This document shows positions 41,092 through 47,876 of a stretch of DNA of 64,000 nt, in pieces (position 1 is the stretch's first letter; each line of letters opens with the position of its first letter). The notes under the pieces are model-generated. The model was not told the origin of the DNA. It saw nothing but the letters and a program-made list of their open reading frames with translations, and ran no database searches. The DNA is from Betaproteobacteria bacterium HGW-Betaproteobacteria-11 (lineage in GTDB: Bacteria > Pseudomonadota > Gammaproteobacteria > Burkholderiales > Rhodocyclaceae), in NCBI GenBank assembly GCA_002842395.1, contig PHCV01000013.1:1-64000 (forward strand). Reading direction: 5' to 3'. The position numbers were made by a program, and so were the translations under genes.

Positions 41092-42281
41092 GCAAGGTGT
41101 TCAGCGCGAAGCCGCTATCGGCCGCCTGCTCCGGAGTGGGCGAGATGCCCTGCTCGAACAGCCGGCGGCCGGCCATGTGCTCGGCCGGCTGATTGATCGA
41201 GTCGATCGCCAGCAGGCGGCCCGCGCGGTAGTAGAAGAGCGAGAATTTGTGCGCCTCGGGCGAGCCGCGGAGGACGGTTTGATCGTACCCCGCGGTCAGT
41301 CCGATCATTTGCAGCTTGACGTCATACTGGTCGGACCAGAACCACGGTGCACCGGCGAACGGCCGCGCCTTGCCGAGCAGGGCAAAGGCAGCCGACTTGC
41401 CCTGTTCGGTGGCGTTCTGCACCGATTCGAGACGCAGCAGGCTGCCATCGGCCAGCCGGCGCACGGTGCAGTCGCCGGCGGCGACGATCGCCGGGTCCGC
41501 TGTGCGGCTTTCGCCATCGACCACGATGCCGCCCGCAACCTCGAGCCCCGCCGCCTGCGCCAGTTCGGCATTGGGGATGACGCCGATGCCCACCAGTACC
41601 AGATCGGCGGGGAATTCGCGGTCCGGTAATCCGGTTGTCATGACCGACGAGTCCCGCCACCATCGCGCCGAGCACGATGTCAACGCCATGGCCGCGGTGC
41701 AGGTCGAGGTAGAACTGCGAAATCCGCGGGCTGACGACGCGCGCCATCAGGCGCTCGGCCGCTTCCAGCACGGTGACCTGCTTGCCCAGCTTGCGCGCGC
41801 AGGCGGCGACTTCGAGGCCGATGAAACCGCCGCCGATGACCACCAGGCTCTGCGCCGACGCCAGCTCCGCCGCGATGGCTTTCGCGTCGTCGAGCGTGCG
41901 CAGGCCATGCACGCCCCGCCAGTCGCTGCCTGGTAGCGGCAGGGGGCGCAGGCGCGAGCCGGTGCATAGCGCAAGGCCATCGTAGGCCAGCGTCGAGCCG
42001 TCGGTGAGGGTCAGGGTGCGTGCGGCACGGTCGATCGCCGTCGCGCCAGCGCCGAGTTTTTGCGTGATGCCTTTCTTCGCCAGCAGCTCGGGCGCGCGCA
42101 TCCAGAGTTGGGCTTCGTGGGTTTGTCCGAGCAGGAAGCCCTTGGACAGGGGCGGCCGGTGGTAGGGCGGATAGGGTTCCTCGCCCAGCAGCGTGATCGC
42201 GCCGGCGAAGCCCTCGGCATGCAAGGTTTCGGCTACGGTCAGACCGGCCAGGCCGGCCCCGATGATGACGATGTGATCCAT
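41084..42281 (-). pseudogene. Ferredoxin reductase-like FAD/NAD oxidoreductase with a frameshift
   Basis: Two frames together give one reductase of about 400 residues. From 42281: HIVIIGAGLAGLTVAETL (FAD site), PYPPYHRPPLSKGFLLG, YDGLALCTGSRLRPLPLPG, SLVVIGGGFIGLEVAA (NAD site), ending in sense near VLGAMVAGLVGHDN. The rest continues in another frame from about 41640: REFPADLVLVGIGVIPNAELAQAAGL, IVAAGDCTV, APWFWSDQYDVKLQMIG. This is the rhodocoxin/putidaredoxin reductase type. The break lies between about 41630 and 41650, and a short stretch there also looks shortened. It may be a real inactivation or an assembly error. It contains one copy of the dispersed repeat (42037-42060). Confidence 0.8.
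42037..42060 (-). repeat. Dispersed 24-bp repeat, copy 6
   Basis: Minus strand reads AAACTCGGCGCTGGCGCG then ACGGCG; 22 of 24 match copy 7. Inside the FAD reductase gene, coding KLGAGATA. Confidence 0.82.
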
Positions 42282-42675
42282 GTGCACACTCCCCCAAACG
42301 CATCCTGCCTTCGATTATAGGGCACCTCTAAAAATCGTCATTCCCGCGAAAGCGGGAATCTATAGTGCATTGAAAAACCTGGATTCCCGCTTTCGCGGGA
42401 ATGACGAAATCTCGATTTTTAGAGGTGCCCTTTATAGGGTGGAGAGCGCGCATCTTTCCGCCTGAAACCGGGAGCTGTGAAAACCCGGCCGCGCCCGACT
42501 TTAGCGTATTCGTATTTCATTCTCCGTAGCTGACAACTCGCGGCCATGGGCGTTAAGATGGACGCCCCACACAACCGTGAGAATACTCGGGGGCCGGATG
42601 CCAGCCTCTACTCCGGCCGCCGGAAATTCGCCACCTGATGCCCAGTTGTCATCGCCCGAAAGGCCGCGCACCTTG
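42282..42675. other. Intergenic region upstream of the MFS gene
   Basis: Apart from the palindromic element, nothing clear is seen. Possible upstream in-frame starts for the transporter at 42577 (GTG) and 42598 (ATG) fall here, but the region before 42676 codes for a Pro/Ser-rich stretch without similarity. Confidence 0.5.
42319..42431. mobile_element. MITE-like palindromic element with 19-bp terminal inverted repeats
   Basis: Exact terminal repeats AGGGCACCTCTAAAAATCG (42319-42337) and its complement (42413-42431) enclose two internal palindromes, each ATTCCCGC-loop-GCGGGAAT (42341-42360 and about 42384-42403). Flanking TTAT on both sides (42315-42318 and 42432-42435) looks like a 4-bp target duplication. 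At 113 bp and without coding it resembles a MITE. The inner units resemble the ATTCCC-N8-GGGAAT repeats described in Neisseria. Confidence 0.75.
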
Positions 42676-44022
42676 ATGACCCCGCCAACTTCAGGCCTTG
42701 CCGATCGCAACCGAAAGCGCTTCATCGCCTTTCGCGTGCTGTTCAACGCGCGCTTTTACTACCCGGTATTGGCCGTACTGTTCCTCGACCTGGGACTTTC
42801 GGCCACGCAATACACGCTGCTTAATTTTGCCTGGGCGATTGTCATTGTCTTGGCCGAAGTGCCGTCCGGCGCGCTTGCCGACCGTGTCGGACGGCGTCCG
42901 CTGATCGTCGCGGCGGCGATCTGCATGGTGCTGGAGATGGTGGTGCTGCTCGTCGCACCGCTCAACGGGGGCGTGGTCCTGTTGCTGTTCTGCCTGGCCA
43001 ACCGCATCCTCAGCGGCCTCGCGGAGGCCTTGGCCAGCGGCGCAGACGAATCCCTGGCCTACGATTCCCTGGCGGCGGAAGCCCGTGCCGCCGAGTGGCC
43101 GGACGTACTCGCCGATGTCATGCACTGGCAGTCGTTTGGTATGCTGCTGGCCATGCTGGTCGGTGCCGCCGTGTATGACCCACACCTGCTGAACAGGATC
43201 ATGGATGTGCTCGGCAGCGATCTGCGCATCGATCAGGGTCTGGCACTGCGCTTTCCGATTGCGCTCAATCTGATCAGCGCGATGCTCGTGCTATGGCTTG
43301 CGCTTGGCATGCGCGAGCCGCCCGCCGTTGGCGCAACGCCCCAGGCGAAAAGTCATCCGGCCAGCAGTTGGCACGGCATCGTGGCTGCCGGTGCCTGGAT
43401 TCTGCACACGCCGGTGGCACTCTTCGTCATCCTCGGTGGCGTGCTGATCGACAGCGTGATTCGCCTGTTCCTGACCTTTGGTAGCGTGTTCTTCCGCCTG
43501 ATCGATCTGCCGGAGGCCAGTTTCGGGCTGATCGGCGCCGGCATGGCCGGACTGGGAATGCTGGTCTCGCCGGTTGCCAGAACGCTGGCCCGTACCAGTT
43601 CATTGCTGCGCAATTTCATGATTCTCGCGGCGTTGACGCTGGCCGGGCTGGTCGGGGTGGCGTTCAAAATTCCGTTCTGGGGCGTGTTGTTCGCCATTCC
43701 CCTGGCTGCAGCGATGACCGCGCTGGGCTTGATCGTTTCGAACACGCTGAATGCCCGGGTTGACGCCGCGCACCGCGCCACCGTTCTTTCCTTCAAGGGG
43801 CTGGTGTTCAATCTTGGCTACGGTTTTGCCAGTCTGCTGTTTGCGCTTGCCTTGCGCGCGATGCGAAACGACGGTTCCGCGGAACAGGCATTTGCCCGTG
43901 CCATTGAAGTGCTGCCGCTGTGGCTGTTGTTTACCCTGGCGCTGCTTGCGCTGGCGTTCCGCCTTCACCACGCCGAGTTGGACGCCAAAGCGGCTGACCC
44001 GGAACGGCCCCAACGAACTTGA
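42676..44022 (+). CDS. MFS transporter
   Basis: About 448 residues from ATG 42676. The sequence has about eleven to twelve hydrophobic segments, and the MFS loop 2-3 motif EVPSGALADRVGRRPLIVAA is clear. A second half (AFKIPFWGVLFAIPLAAAMTALGLIVSNTLNARV, then RATVLSFKGLVFNLGYGFASL) completes a 12-helix layout. The substrate is unknown; no cytoplasmic enzyme neighbours help. It ends 190 bp before the left border of the tRNA-Asn cassette. Confidence 0.82.
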   Translation: MTPPTSGLADRNRKRFIAFRVLFNARFYYPVLAVLFLDLGLSATQYTLLNFAWAIVIVLAEVPSGALADRVGRRPLIVAAAICMVLEMVVLLVAPLNGGVVLLLFCLANRILSGLAEALASGADESLAYDSLAAEARAAEWPDVLADVMHWQSFGMLLAMLVGAAVYDPHLLNRIMDVLGSDLRIDQGLALRFPIALNLISAMLVLWLALGMREPPAVGATPQAKSHPASSWHGIVAAGAWILHTPVALFVILGGVLIDSVIRLFLTFGSVFFRLIDLPEASFGLIGAGMAGLGMLVSPVARTLARTSSLLRNFMILAALTLAGLVGVAFKIPFWGVLFAIPLAAAMTALGLIVSNTLNARVDAAHRATVLSFKGLVFNLGYGFASLLFALALRAMRNDGSAEQAFARAIEVLPLWLLFTLALLALAFRLHHAELDAKAADPERPQRT

Positions 44023-44211: not shown

Positions 44212-44260
44212 TGGCTCCTCGATCTGGGCTCGAACCAGGGACCTACGGATTAACAGTTCG
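44212..44260. repeat. attL-like copy of tRNA-Asn 3' part
   Basis: Forty-seven of 49 bases are identical to 47801-47849, the 3' end of the tRNA-Asn gene from CCA through the anticodon stem, in the same orientation. Sequence similarity ends abruptly on both sides. This is the classical product of site-specific integration into a tRNA gene. Confidence 0.92.
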
Positions 44261-44415
44261 ATAAATGTATAGTTAAATCAACGTATTGATTCGCCCTCAA
44301 ACGCCAATACTCACCAGACAAAGTTTCAATATCTACGTTGCTGTTGGCACTCACGTGATACGGTGCGGTAGTAGAATCCGTTTGTCATTCGCGATAAGGC
44401 AAACGAGGGGGCAAA

Positions 44416-46206
44416 GTGGCAACGCTGATTCCGAGCTACGGTACATGCGCATCGCGCATGACCCCCGGCGAGCGCCGTTTCGCGCAGAGGCTCGAAGTCA
44501 AACTTGAAGATGACTACCTTTGCTGGTTTGATGTTCCCGTTGGTCCAACGAACAGCCACCCCGATTTCATCGTCTTGCATCCTCGCCGAGGACTGTTGAT
44601 CCTCGAAGTAAAGGACTGGAAGCCTGAGACGATCCAGTCGATAACGAAATCGGATGTCGCGATCCTGACTCCCAAGGGGCTCAAGCATGTTCCCAATCCA
44701 CTGGAGCAGGCTCGCCAATACGCCCATTCAGTCATTGGCGTACTAGAGCGCGACAGGCAGCTGACCTTCTCTAGTGGCCGTTTTGTGGGGCGGTTGATGT
44801 TCCCGTGGACCTATGGGGTTGTGCTGACAAACATCTCCCGCTGTATCTTCGACAGCTCCGGTCTGTCGGAAGTCATCGAGCCGCATCGCGTGATCTGTCA
44901 GGACGAAATGACTGAGTCAGTGGATGGCGAAGCCTTTCAGCAACGGCTGTGGGAAATGTTCTCCATTCGCTTTCAGGGCGGGCTGTCATTGCCCCAACTC
45001 GACCGCATCCGCTGGCACTTGTTCCCGGAAATTCGTCTGCCTGATCCTCAAGATGGGCTCTTTAGCGTAAAAGAACTTGAACCCGTGGAAATCCCCGATT
45101 TGATGCGGGTGATGGACCTACAGCAAGAACAACTGGCGCGTAGCCTCGGCGAAGGGCATCGCGTCATCCACGGTGTGGCAGGCTCGGGTAAGACCCTCAT
45201 CCTCGGCTACCGTGCCGAGCAGCTTGCTAAGGTCTGCGTAAAGCCTATCCTCGTTCTTTGCTACAACAAGACGCTGGCGGGACGGCTCATGCACTGGATG
45301 TCTAGCAAAGGCGTGGCCGACAAGGTACATGTGCGTACCTTCCACAGCTGGTGCTATAGCCAATTGAATGCCTACAACGTCAGCTTCAACAAGACGAAGG
45401 GCGACAAAGCTGCGGACATGGCCGAAATGGTCCAAGCTGTTATCCGCAGCGTTGATCGCGGTCAGATACCCGTCGCCCAATATGAAGCCGTGATGATCGA
45501 CGAAGGTCACGACTTCAAACCAGAGTGGCTGAAGCTTGTTGTCCAGATGGTCGATCCGCGCACTAATTCGCTGCTGGTGCTATACGACGACGCACAGTCG
45601 ATATACGAAGCGGGGCGGCAGAAGAACTTCAGCTTCAAGAGCGTAGGCATTCAGGCGCAGGGCCGCACCACCGTCTTGAAAGTGAATTACCGCAACACTC
45701 AGGAGATTCTGGAGTTCACCACGCAATTCGCTAGTGAGTTGCTCAAACCTGCCGAGGCTGAAGAAGATGGTATTCCGCGCCTCGCGCCCATTTCGGCAGG
45801 TCGCCACGGCAAGGTGCCAGTGGTGGTTAAACTGCCGACACTACAGTCCGAAGGCGCATGGATCGCAGAGCGATTGAAGGAAGAACATACGAATGGAATT
45901 GCTTGGCGCGACATGGCGATCCTGTATCGCCATTACGATCCGGTTTGCAAAGTTGTTCGGGCGGAATTGCGCAAGGCTGGCATTCCCAGTACATGGAAAG
46001 ACGAGGTGACTTTCGGCGAGAGCCAAGAGACCGTCAAACTACTGCCGTTTCATAGTAGTAAAGGCCTTGAGTATCGAATTATCGTAATTCCTGGCGCAGG
46101 GCTGCTTCCGACACCGGATAGGGCGACAGATGAAGATGCGCGCCTGCTTTATGTCGCAATGACTCGGGCAACGTCACAGCTAATCGTTACTGGAGCAGAT
46201 CAATAA
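44416..46206 (+). CDS. NERD-domain nuclease / UvrD-like SF1 helicase
   Basis: A 596-residue protein. The N-terminal NERD domain (about residues 15-125) carries a PD-(D/E)xK-like site: PDFIVLHPRRGLLILEVKDW, with D50, E64 and K66. The helicase has Walker A GVAGSGKT (about 253-260), motif Ia LCYNKTLAGRL, motif II AVMIDEGHDFK (DEGH in place of DExx), YDDAQSIYE (motif III), VNYRNTQEILEF (IV), SSKGLEYRIIVIPGAG (V) and LLYVAMTRATSQLIVTG (VI). GTG 44416 follows GAGGGGG. Family members with this layout occur in mobile islands and are suspected antiviral or plasmid-restriction factors, but the activity of this protein is not established. Confidence 0.88.
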   Translation: MATLIPSYGTCASRMTPGERRFAQRLEVKLEDDYLCWFDVPVGPTNSHPDFIVLHPRRGLLILEVKDWKPETIQSITKSDVAILTPKGLKHVPNPLEQARQYAHSVIGVLERDRQLTFSSGRFVGRLMFPWTYGVVLTNISRCIFDSSGLSEVIEPHRVICQDEMTESVDGEAFQQRLWEMFSIRFQGGLSLPQLDRIRWHLFPEIRLPDPQDGLFSVKELEPVEIPDLMRVMDLQQEQLARSLGEGHRVIHGVAGSGKTLILGYRAEQLAKVCVKPILVLCYNKTLAGRLMHWMSSKGVADKVHVRTFHSWCYSQLNAYNVSFNKTKGDKAADMAEMVQAVIRSVDRGQIPVAQYEAVMIDEGHDFKPEWLKLVVQMVDPRTNSLLVLYDDAQSIYEAGRQKNFSFKSVGIQAQGRTTVLKVNYRNTQEILEFTTQFASELLKPAEAEEDGIPRLAPISAGRHGKVPVVVKLPTLQSEGAWIAERLKEEHTNGIAWRDMAILYRHYDPVCKVVRAELRKAGIPSTWKDEVTFGESQETVKLLPFHSSKGLEYRIIVIPGAGLLPTPDRATDEDARLLYVAMTRATSQLIVTGADQ

Positions 46207-46349
46207 GGACTGATGAAAGCCAGCAATCTCACCAGGATGGCGCGAATACTGTTTGCGGTACTCCAGGGGGCACCGCAATGAGGGTTGGGATGTACCGCCA
46301 GGCGCCTACCAGCGGCAGCCGCCACAGTAGCGAGAACCTCGAACCGTCG

Positions 46350-47438
46350 TCAATTGTTCATCCACCTCCCAACCAAAAACTTCATTGCTTTGGCCATGTC
46401 GTTACCATATTCATGGTCTACCATCTGTTCATCGCTCATGAAGTGCCAGAATGGGCCAAGGTATGTCTCCTGCAAGTCCTCATAGCTCTCGAATTCAAGC
46501 GGGAAGTGCTTGTCGTCGCAGACATCCTCGATGGCATTCAGCAGGGCGACGGAATCCTCATAGTCCTCGAACTTCAATATCTCCCGCCGCTCCATCACCC
46601 ACTTTTTAAATGACTTGCTCCATCCGGCCAGCATCTGGCTGACGGGGGTCTTGGGCTGCCAAAGAATCAGGGACGTCTTGCCCGGATACCACCAGCTCCA
46701 ATCATGGTGGAACGTCACCCACATGCCAATCTCCTTGGCGTGGTTGAAAACCTCCTTCTCCGCGTCGCCCCTCAATGCCTCCATGTAAGGCATCGACACT
46801 TCGGCGGTGCATACGGCGACGGAGCGCCCGCTGGACAGTTTCAGCAAATGAAAGAAATTCCAGCAATGGTCGCTATGCGGATGCGAGAGAACCGAAGTGA
46901 CGGCCTTTTTCAACAAATCTGATTCAGATGGCTTGGCCGAATGGTTCAAATCGACGCGGGGATATTCACGGGCCAGCAGGTCCTTCGGCAGGTTGTGGAG
47001 CGGAATGCCCAGTCTGAACTCCTTGGCGAACATCTCGGCGAAACGCTCTTTGAGCGGCAGCGAATTCTCGCGTTTCTCGACAGCCGCGAGAATCTTGCCA
47101 AGCAGTTCGTTGGCCTCCAATGTCAGATTGACTCCGTGCAGGGACGGCATTGCGTCTGATGCCGCGGAGGAGATTTCCAGCAGGGAGCGCACGAACCTGT
47201 CCATCTCCTCGGCGGAAACGGAGAACCACTCCTTTCCCTGCCCGGCAATCTTGTCCTTGAATGCCTGCTTGATGAACAGCTCGATTCTGTGTGCCTGCTC
47301 CGCCGAGCACGGGTAGGTCCTGAAAACCTCGTGGTTGGGGTTGTGCGTCTTGTAGGCCGGAAGCCTCCTTTCCAGATTGGAGCTCTTGCCAATCTTGGCT
47401 TTGTCTCCATCCTTGATGATGTAGATGTGAGCGGTCAT
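46350..47438 (-). CDS. GIY-YIG (T5orf172-like) N-terminal domain protein with unknown C-terminal region
   Basis: A 362-residue protein. Residues 1-90 fit a GIY-YIG-type nuclease fold: HIYIIKDGDKAKIGKSSNLERRL (Y..K-I-G and Arg), EQAHRIELFIKQAF (the metal-binding Glu), then GKEWFSVSAEEMDRFV. The remaining 270 residues, including SVLSHPHSDHCWNFFHLLKL and a Trp-rich block (VTFHHDWSWWYPGKTSLILW), resemble nothing I recognise. The ATG at 47438 follows AGAGGG; the longer upstream frame lacks a ribosome site and would add 73 unlike residues. It converges on the NERD helicase. Both could form a two-gene defence or anti-plasmid module; that is inference from position and domain type. Confidence 0.75.
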   Translation of the reverse strand: MTAHIYIIKDGDKAKIGKSSNLERRLPAYKTHNPNHEVFRTYPCSAEQAHRIELFIKQAFKDKIAGQGKEWFSVSAEEMDRFVRSLLEISSAASDAMPSLHGVNLTLEANELLGKILAAVEKRENSLPLKERFAEMFAKEFRLGIPLHNLPKDLLAREYPRVDLNHSAKPSESDLLKKAVTSVLSHPHSDHCWNFFHLLKLSSGRSVAVCTAEVSMPYMEALRGDAEKEVFNHAKEIGMWVTFHHDWSWWYPGKTSLILWQPKTPVSQMLAGWSKSFKKWVMERREILKFEDYEDSVALLNAIEDVCDDKHFPLEFESYEDLQETYLGPFWHFMSDEQMVDHEYGNDMAKAMKFLVGRWMNN

Positions 47439-47759
47439 GTTTTCCCTCTGTGGCCTGTCCCGATTGTATGCCAAGCAGGACCGCCGTTCAGCGTCATTCT
47501 TTGACATTGGCATCGTCAGAGTTATAAATGCTTCTTTCAAAGAGTTTGAGTTTGATGGCATCGGCAGGCGGGAACGTCCTGCGACGAGCTGAAGGACTTG
47601 GGCGGATGGAAGTCGCGTTAGATGGTAGGTCGATACGCAAAGTATGCAACCAAGCATCTAGCGGTGGCGGCAGCGCGAATCGAGAGCTGTGCGGATGCAG
47701 GTGGGAAGGATGGCGGCGGGAACGCAGTTTTGTTTCCTGCGTTTCCCTACGTTCAGAAA
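47439..47759. other. Upstream noncoding end of the tRNA-Asn cassette
   Basis: No convincing gene is present; short open frames here lack similarity, ribosome sites and codon bias. It should hold the promoter of the GIY-YIG gene. A terminator for tRNA-Asn follows at 47760-47790. Confidence 0.5.
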
Positions 47760-47790
47760 GACAAAGGGCCTAGCCTTTTGGGCTAGACCC
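47760..47790 (-). terminator. Rho-independent terminator of tRNA-Asn
   Basis: On the minus strand GGGTCTAGCCC-AAAA-GGCTAGGCCC forms a stem with one mismatch, followed by TTTGTCTTTC. It sits 10 nt after the tRNA 3' end, just inside the cassette. Confidence 0.8.
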
Positions 47791-47800
47791 TTACGTATTC

Positions 47801-47876
47801 TGGCTCCTCGACCTGGGCTCGAACCAGGGACCTACGGATTAACAGTCCGGCGCTCTACCAACTGAGCTATCGAGGA
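47801..47876 (-). tRNA. tRNA-Asn (GTT)
   Basis: A 76-nt cloverleaf on the minus strand: TCCTCGATAGCTCAGTTGG at the 5' end, anticodon loop CTGTTAA with anticodon GTT, GGTTCGAGCCC T arm, and GTCGAGGA-GCCA at the 3' end with encoded CCA. It is intact although its 3' part serves as the integration site; the partial copy is at 44212-44260. Confidence 0.97.

What the first reader, a model, noticed from the sequence alone, without database searches (positions are those of the whole stretch)
44212..47849. Minimal tRNA-Asn-integrated cassette carrying a NERD helicase and a GIY-YIG protein
A 49-bp direct repeat (47 identical) of the tRNA-Asn 3' part encloses 3.6 kb with only two large genes, convergently oriented. 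Both are nucleic-acid enzymes: a NERD nuclease-like domain fused to an SF1 helicase, and a GIY-YIG-type protein with a large unrecognised region. tRNA-bounded, integrase-less cassettes of this size are typical hiding places for phage- or plasmid-defence modules and satellites. The two-gene combination is not one I can name as a described system. Repeat and domains are seen directly; the defence role is inference.
Basis: partly seen in the sequence, partly recalled or inferred. Interest (0 to 1): 0.78.

Follow-up and report, generated by a model that had tools for sequence, protein, structure and literature searches.

The report
Two unrelated nuclease genes beside tRNA-Asn
A short stretch of probably foreign DNA next to a tRNA gene carries one member of an already catalogued family of probable virus-defence enzymes and one rare orphan nuclease; the two were not found together elsewhere, so this looks like an ordinary gene-exchange spot rather than a new two-gene defence system.

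Summary
In detail: a 49-bp copy (47 identical) of the tRNA-Asn 3' part at 44212-44260, the intact tRNA at 47801-47876, two large convergent genes between. Gene 1 (44416-46206) is a full-length member of a catalogued family, PADLOC C3a187 "NERD+UvrD" (E 5e-178), with conserved catalytic motifs: 0 of 8 congeners, 21 of 149 other relatives, relatives in 605 of 5,426 E. coli genomes (>=80% of the query covered), and beside a type III-B cas operon on a Nostoc plasmid. Gene 2 (46350-47438) is a T5orf172/GIY-YIG protein with an orphan C-terminal part; a pattern-based scan of 84,980 species genomes found one relative, beside ribosomal genes and without gene 1. tblastn found no gene-2 relative in 46 gene-1 loci. 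So the pair is not a recurring module. The tRNA-Asn is an insertion site used more than once: a congener carries a 9.1-kb element with integrase and capsid genes there. But in the window the terminator sits beside the intact tRNA, the reverse of that element, which argues against a clean one-step insertion. Most likely gene 1 is a stand-alone Nhi-like nuclease-helicase and gene 2 an independent single-gene nuclease.

The parts
44212..44260 (-). distal 49-bp copy of the tRNA-Asn 3' part (tRNA position 28 to the encoded CCA)
44261..44370 (.). AT-rich filler without a recognised feature (GC 0.43 over 44261-44415)
44371..44415 (+). upstream stretch of gene 1 that still aligns with the close homologue of G009; possible 5' control region (no consensus promoter found there)
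44416..46206 (+). gene 1: NERD nuclease domain fused to an SF1 UvrD-type helicase, PADLOC C3a187 family
46350..47438 (-). gene 2: T5orf172/GIY-YIG domain (residues 4-85) with an orphan C-terminal region (about 90-362)
47764..47792 (-). 12-pair terminator-like hairpin directly after the tRNA-Asn gene, similar to that of congener G001
47801..47876 (-). intact tRNA-Asn (GTT); its 3' 49 bp (47801-47849) is the proximal copy of the repeat

Best explanation
The 3.6-kb segment is probably foreign DNA at a tRNA-Asn insertion site and holds two independent single-gene cargoes. Gene 1 is most likely a stand-alone immune nuclease-helicase: the SF1 motor loads on single-stranded or branched replication intermediates of incoming DNA, uses ATP to move, and the fused PD-(D/E)XK-type NERD domain cuts, much as is described for Nhi. 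Gene 2 is a separate GIY-YIG nuclease that moves as a bare coding sequence, homing-endonuclease-like or a second defence or mobile-element nuclease. They share the site, not a pathway. Shown here: family membership, conserved catalytic motifs, purifying selection on both genes, patchy distribution, occurrence of each gene without the other, use of the same tRNA by another element. Inferred: substrate, trigger, defence role, and how the segment arrived.
For: Gene 1 matches PADLOC C3a187 over its whole length (E 5e-178); a Nostoc plasmid protein downstream of cas10-cmr3-cmr4-cmr6 (one hypothetical gene between) matches the same model at 5e-293 and an E. coli plasmid homologue at 4e-138. D50, E64 and K66 of NERD and the GxAGSGKT, DExHD and TR motifs are kept in at least 97% of 34 aligned members. 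pN/pS 0.135 for gene 1 against G009; dN/dS 0.12 for gene 2 against its one relative. Patchy: 0 of 8 congeners and 21 of 149 other relatives (the congeners among them) at E<=1e-40, three of the 21 being fragments; 21 of 369 genomes of the class, this genome and G105 included. Gene-1 neighbourhoods differ: gyrB (named by eye), T6SS genes, viperin, plasmids. No gene-2 hit in 46 gene-1 loci by tblastn at E<=1; gene 2's relative stands beside the S10 operon and the similarity ends at its coding sequence. Same site: G003 has integrase, RadC, Toprim primase and a capsid/protease protein between two tRNA-Asn 3' copies; G029, another genus, has two copies 7.4 kb apart. Nhi as a nuclease-helicase activated by phage SSB: PMC10732053 (passages read).
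Against: Neighbours of gene 1 are not clearly richer in PADLOC families than control genes (98 neighbours, 47 families; 91 controls, 62 families), so the defence role rests on the family label, the Nostoc loci and the protein's make-up. No Cmr2/Cas10 in 34 gene-1 genomes, so the label's CRISPR link does not hold there. Similarity to the Nhi model is weak and partial (E 4.8e-7, residues 343-440). UvrB is as similar to G009 (85%) as gene 1 is (84%), so sequence identity alone does not prove transfer; the case for it is the absence from congeners and the GC. Neither structure prediction was usable (mean pLDDT 39.9 and 43.1). Gene 2's homing reading rests on one relative.
Confidence: 0.62

Rival explanations
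1. Genes 1 and 2 form one two-gene defence system in which two nucleases act on the same invader.
For: They are the two large convergent genes between the repeats and both are under purifying selection. A Nostoc plasmid also has a GIY-YIG gene about 1 kb from a gene-1 homologue, opposite strand.
Against: No gene-2 hit in 46 gene-1 loci; gene 2's only relative found lacks gene 1 in its 13.9-kb locus. The Nostoc GIY-YIG protein shows no similarity to gene 2 (best E 3.8). The genes are convergent, not an operon. A defence-like neighbour that does recur near gene 1 is an HNH endonuclease, 3 of 25 loci.
Confidence: 0.05
2. The segment is the remnant of an integrase-driven island or satellite that inserted once into tRNA-Asn and lost its integrase, with the repeat as attL/attR.
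For: The repeat ends at the CCA as in G003, where an integrase gene lies next to the intact tRNA. Low GC.
Against: In G003 and G029 a strong hairpin terminator lies beside the distal copy (15 and 14 pairs) and none was found beside the intact copy, as a clean insertion requires; the G003 distal flank also matches the flanks of G004 and G005. In the window it is the reverse: a 12-pair hairpin beside the intact tRNA, similar to that of the single-copy site of G001 (alignment score 82, shuffle maximum 58), and none near the distal copy, whose flank resembles none of eight congener flanks tested. An element could have carried a host-like terminator. No PF00589 match on this contig.
Confidence: 0.3
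3. The distal 49 bp is the stub of a former tandem tRNA-Asn copy, with DNA later inserted between the copies.
For: Pairs or runs of tRNA-Asn-like matches about 100-200 bp apart occur in several genomes of the order (G028, G034, G056, G103, G116, G121).
Against: No tandem copy in the congeners read; the stub ends at the same place as the G003 distal copy.
Confidence: 0.15
4. Gene 1 is a repair or CRISPR-accessory enzyme, not a stand-alone defence protein.
For: UvrD-like motor. On a Nostoc plasmid it follows a type III-B cas operon.
Against: Patchy, partly plasmid-borne distribution; 0 of 34 gene-1 genomes have a Cmr2/Cas10 match (the III-A Csm1 model was not searched).
Confidence: 0.2

Closest known systems
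PADLOC C3a187 'NERD+UvrD' (PDLC01087)
   Same: Whole-length match, same domain order, same conserved motifs
   Different: The Nostoc PCC 7524 member sits with a type III-B cas operon; here no cas gene was seen between the repeats and no Cmr2 in the genome
Nhi (nuclease-helicase immunity) and AbiO, PADLOC models
   Same: Single protein with a nuclease part and a helicase part; phage SSB reported as activator of Nhi (PMC10732053, passages)
   Different: Only partial, weak similarity in the motor (E 4.8e-7 and 3.9e-9); that NERD occurs in 'Nhi-like' is quoted from a review table (PMC10952713, passages)
Gabija GajB and RT-associated NERD-helicases (PADLOC RTasNERD-Hel)
   Same: UvrD-type motor; RTasNERD-Hel by its name also joins NERD and helicase
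   Different: No GajA or reverse transcriptase gene between the repeats; much lower scores
T5orf172 GIY-YIG proteins such as ICP1 Gp88 (Odn) and putative phage homing endonucleases
   Same: T5orf172 catalytic domain joined to another region (PMC8263062, passages)
   Different: Gene 2 has the domain at the N-terminus and an orphan C-terminal region; no relative in the phage or IMG/VR searches
Satellite-like element at tRNA-Asn in congener G003 (L038)
   Same: Same tRNA, same kind of 3' repeat
   Different: Has integrase, primase and capsid genes and the usual att polarity

Membership tests
PADLOC C3a187 NERD+UvrD | whole-length match to the profile | tested here: met
   E 5.1e-178, residues 1-594 on profile 1-544/559
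PADLOC C3a187 NERD+UvrD | catalytic residues of NERD and SF1 motor present | tested here: met
   D50, E64, K66, GxAGSGKT, DExHD, TR in at least 97% of 34 sequences; residue roles recalled
Type III CRISPR accessory gene | type III cas operon next to the gene or at least in the genome | tested here: not met
   no TIGR02577 (Cmr2/Cas10) match in the own genome or in 33 other gene-1 genomes; III-A Csm1 model not searched
Nhi / AbiO | whole-length similarity to the Nhi or AbiO model | tested here: not met
   partial matches only, best stretch about residues 343-440
Nhi / AbiO | phage protection triggered by replication intermediates or phage SSB | not testable with these tools
   needs experiment
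tRNA-integrated island | direct repeat of the tRNA 3' part at both ends | tested here: met
tRNA-integrated island | host flank (terminator) displaced to the distal copy | tested here: not met
   12-pair hairpin beside the intact tRNA, none near the distal copy; opposite in G003 and G029
tRNA-integrated island | integrase gene | tested here: not met
   no PF00589 match on this contig, four elsewhere in the genome; other recombinase types not searched
tRNA-integrated island | empty site in close relatives | tested here: met
   single copy in 5 of 8 congeners within the stretch read; 1 with another element, 1 broken, 1 unresolved
Recurring two-gene defence system | the gene pair recurs in unrelated genomes | tested here: not met
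   0 of 46 gene-1 loci by tblastn; 0 of 1 gene-2 relative
Free-standing homing endonuclease (gene 2) | T5orf172/GIY-YIG domain in a gene that moves alone | tested here: inconclusive
   domain met; similarity to L016 stops at the coding sequence, but only one relative
Free-standing homing endonuclease (gene 2) | cuts an allele lacking the gene and is copied into it | not testable with these tools
   needs experiment

The most novel reading that the evidence does not exclude
Gene 1 represents an untested single-gene immune system: a solitary NERD-SF1 nuclease-helicase, spread from cyanobacterial plasmids to about 600 complete E. coli genomes, that acts alone on replicating foreign DNA, and that type III CRISPR loci of cyanobacteria took up as an accessory. 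Gene 2 would add an orphan GIY-YIG effector family with an undescribed C-terminal domain.
Probability: 0.4. Interest if true: 0.5.

Novelty: new member of a known kind. Interest (0 to 1): 0.27.

Why it matters
As a two-gene system it would have been a new defence module; the evidence is against that. What remains useful is that a catalogued nuclease-helicase family, for which I found no functional paper, occurs alone, outside CRISPR loci, and is common in E. coli, where a phage test is easy. The tRNA-Asn locus is also a site where a satellite-like element and single genes can be compared across congeners.

Tried and rejected
Two-gene system: rejected for lack of recurrence. Metallo-beta-lactamase fold in gene 2, suggested by an HPHSDH string and weak Pfam hits (0.11 and 0.25): rejected, because the relative reads HPHSNH and does not hit those models. 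Type III-B CRISPR accessory role in this genome: rejected. Structures of gene 2 and gene 1: models too poor to use, so no fold search was run. Defence-island enrichment of gene-1 neighbours: inconclusive. I gave 98 neighbours (nearest two a side where present, 25 of 26 loci; L090 left out, contig end and weak match) out of 149 called, and 91 control genes (19 of 20 control loci; L111 left out, 3.3 kb) out of 156 called; the tool tallies by family and lists 25 families, so no rate per protein can be stated. Genes were called by my own ORF picker, so some neighbours may be spurious. Relatives of gene 2 in IMG/VR, phages and plasmids: none found. Gene 1 in the phage collection: none at E<=1e-20; five IMG/VR contigs carry a 40-44% identical relative. 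Consensus promoter and terminator scan of the segment: no more sites than in shuffles (1 against 1.6; 2 against 3.8), so only the hairpin next to the tRNA, which G001 shares, is used here. Literature: I found no paper that tests this NERD+UvrD family (searches; listings, and passages of a few); the library is open-access only. The meaning of the label 'C3a' as 'type III CRISPR accessory' is recalled, supported here only by the Nostoc PCC 7524 locus.
Full report
Observation. The 49-bp repeat, the intact tRNA-Asn and the two convergent genes are as described. The right-hand gene starts at the ATG at 47438, not at 47657: its only relative aligns from exactly that codon. The two genes have 0.55 GC against 0.62 for the window, and the stretch next to the distal repeat has 0.43, which fits foreign origin.

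Gene 1. It matches PADLOC PDLC01087, 'C3a187, NERD+UvrD', over its whole length at 5e-178. The same model is hit at 5e-293 by a Nostoc PCC 7524 plasmid protein that follows a type III-B cas operon with one hypothetical gene between, and at 4e-138 by an E. coli plasmid protein. The catalytic positions of NERD (D50, E64, K66) and the SF1 motifs are kept in at least 97% of 34 aligned members (residue roles recalled). Against the homologue of G009 pN/pS is 0.135, so the gene is maintained by selection. Its distribution is patchy: 0 of 8 congeners and 21 of 149 other relatives (the congeners among them) at E<=1e-40, three of the 21 being fragments; 21 of 369 genomes of the class at E<=1e-80, this genome and G105 included, and 0 of 14 control genomes; 23 of 72,556 plasmid records at E<=1e-30. 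DNA of the E. coli family member is found in 1,036 of 5,426 E. coli genomes, in 605 with at least 80% of the query covered; 1,064 of 1,079 places are chromosomal. In records of O157:H7 and some other serotypes the match stops at an IS66 transposase. Transfer is suggested by absence from the congeners and by GC; identity alone does not prove it, because UvrB is as similar to G009 (85%) as gene 1 is (84%).

Context of gene 1 elsewhere. It sits beside gyrB (named by eye, L046), inside a T6SS cluster in Pantoea, beside viperin on a Nostoc plasmid, and among unrelated chromosomal genes in many genomes. Defence-like neighbours that recur among 98 neighbours of 25 loci are an HNH_2 endonuclease downstream on the same strand in 3 loci (L045, L046, L091, among them the two closest homologues) and, in 2 loci (L049, L075), a putAbiC plus Fic pair, assigned by me from the tallies and the sequences; one locus (L081) has a type I methyltransferase-like gene (same basis). 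Other recurring families are not defence-like, such as EamA and GGDEF/PAS (3 members each), or are ambiguous, such as PIN (2). PADLOC tallies of neighbours and controls do not separate. None of 34 gene-1 genomes has a Cmr2/Cas10 match. So in Pseudomonadota it mostly looks like a solitary gene. The type III link holds for 1 of the 6 cyanobacterial plasmid loci I opened; a second, Euhalothece, has cas1-cas2 some 6 kb away.

Gene 2. Residues 4-85 are a T5orf172/MUG113 (GIY-YIG superfamily) domain. The rest matches nothing in Pfam, NCBIfam, PADLOC, PHROGs or the PDB beyond noise. Relatives: 0 of 149 other related genomes, none found in plasmids or phages or IMG/VR, and one in the collection of 84,980 species genomes: a betaproteobacterial groundwater MAG, 80% identical, where it lies between the S10 ribosomal operon (named by eye) and a PIN gene with no gene 1 in 13.9 kb. 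That scan works by short peptide patterns and may miss distant relatives. DNA similarity ends at the coding sequence. dN/dS is 0.12 overall, 0.056 in the first 90 residues. The protein is maintained and occurs alone, which suggests a homing-type or other single-gene nuclease, but one relative cannot settle it.

The pair. tblastn of gene 2 against 46 gene-1 loci (some near-duplicates, one with a broken gene-1 copy) gives no hit at E<=1. The one other case seen of a GIY-YIG gene close to gene 1, in Nostoc PCC 7524, is unrelated in sequence. The pair is therefore best read as a local coincidence at an insertion site.

The tRNA locus. Among the 8 congeners, G001, G005, G006, G007 and G008 have one copy in the stretch read; G003 has a 9.1-kb element between two copies, with an integrase next to the tRNA, RadC, Toprim primase, a weak HTH match (below its cut-off) and a capsid/prohead-protease protein; G004 is split across contigs with a copy at each end; G002 was not resolved. 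G029, another genus, has copies 7.4 kb apart. In G003 and G029 a strong hairpin lies beside the distal copy (15 and 14 pairs; in G003 the T-run criterion is met on the strand opposite to the tRNA) and none was found beside the intact copy. The G003 distal flank matches those of G004 (119, shuffle maximum 54) and G005 (53 against 46), and its intact flank does not. That is what insertion into the tRNA 3' end predicts. In the window it is the other way round. The hairpin beside the intact tRNA has 12 pairs and resembles that of single-copy G001 (11 pairs; score 82, shuffle maximum 58; beyond the hairpin 38 against 49, not significant). Of the eight congener flanks compared, G001's is the only one that the window's intact flank resembles; the distal flank resembles none and has no terminator within 280 bp. 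Either an element carried a host-like terminator, or the distal stub arrived with the left part of the segment by another route, or later rearrangement obscured the event; the genes left of the segment are rearranged against G001.

Mechanism. Shown: domains, motifs, selection, patchiness. Inferred: gene 1 loads on ssDNA or forks of invading DNA and cuts with NERD. The nearest tested analogue is Nhi, reported to respond to phage SSB or replication complexes (PMC10732053, passages only). NERD is listed for Mokosh type I and 'Nhi-like' in a review table (PMC10952713, passages only). A figure legend in PMC10910872 explains the labels NERD and UvrD among CRISPR-association results (passages only). 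PMC9519451 mentions a GIY-YIG nuclease among E. coli defence hits (passage only). In membership terms gene 1 is a C3a187 protein; it is not shown to be an Nhi protein, and it is not a type III-B accessory here.

Verdict. Real observation, partly right interpretation, ordinary as a system. Interest comes from the untested single-gene defence family, not from the cassette.

Noticed in passing
window 30242, 34605, 36826, 37984, 40320, 42036, 49183, 53142, 57142, 62544 (starts): A dispersed, non-palindromic motif with core GTCGGCGCTGGYGANACGGCG, often preceded by AAAA: 10 copies in the window (<=3 mismatches, 0.03 expected), 345 in the own genome and 229-349 in each of the 8 other genus genomes (<=2 mismatches; reversed-pattern control 0-1 a genome). 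In the loci looked at it lies between genes and inside long open frames, on both strands, like a DNA-uptake or other chromosome-wide site.
   Followed up: partly
L038:4494-13690 (G003): A 9.1-kb element at the same tRNA-Asn in a congener: tyrosine integrase, RadC, Toprim primase and one protein with prohead-protease and capsid parts; looks like a capsid-encoding phage satellite or a prophage remnant.
   Followed up: partly
L045:10975-11889, L046:7817-8791, L091:7205-7675: An HNH_2 endonuclease lies downstream of gene-1 homologues on the same strand in 3 of 25 loci, among them the two closest homologues; the L045 protein also matches a type IV restriction model. A better partner candidate than gene 2.
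   Followed up: partly
L070 (E. coli O157:H7) and similar records: The E. coli family member is cut short at an IS66 transposase in listed O157:H7, O111 and O121 records; in the one opened it lies near an integrase gene and tRNA-Phe.
   Followed up: no
window 41322-42287: The FAD-dependent oxidoreductase ORF looks frameshifted: normal N-terminal part, then an Arg/Gly-rich tail that looks out of frame. Sequencing error or pseudogene.
   Followed up: no
window 42577-44022: The best match of the MFS gene in the closest congener G001 lies on another contig, and the fad block that flanks tRNA-Asn in G001 lies on contig C12 here: the region left of tRNA-Asn is rearranged.
   Followed up: partly
L128:3573-11101 (G029): Another genus of the family has an intact tRNA-Asn and a distal 3' copy 7.4 kb apart, with a 14-pair terminator beside the distal copy; contents not examined.
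   Followed up: no
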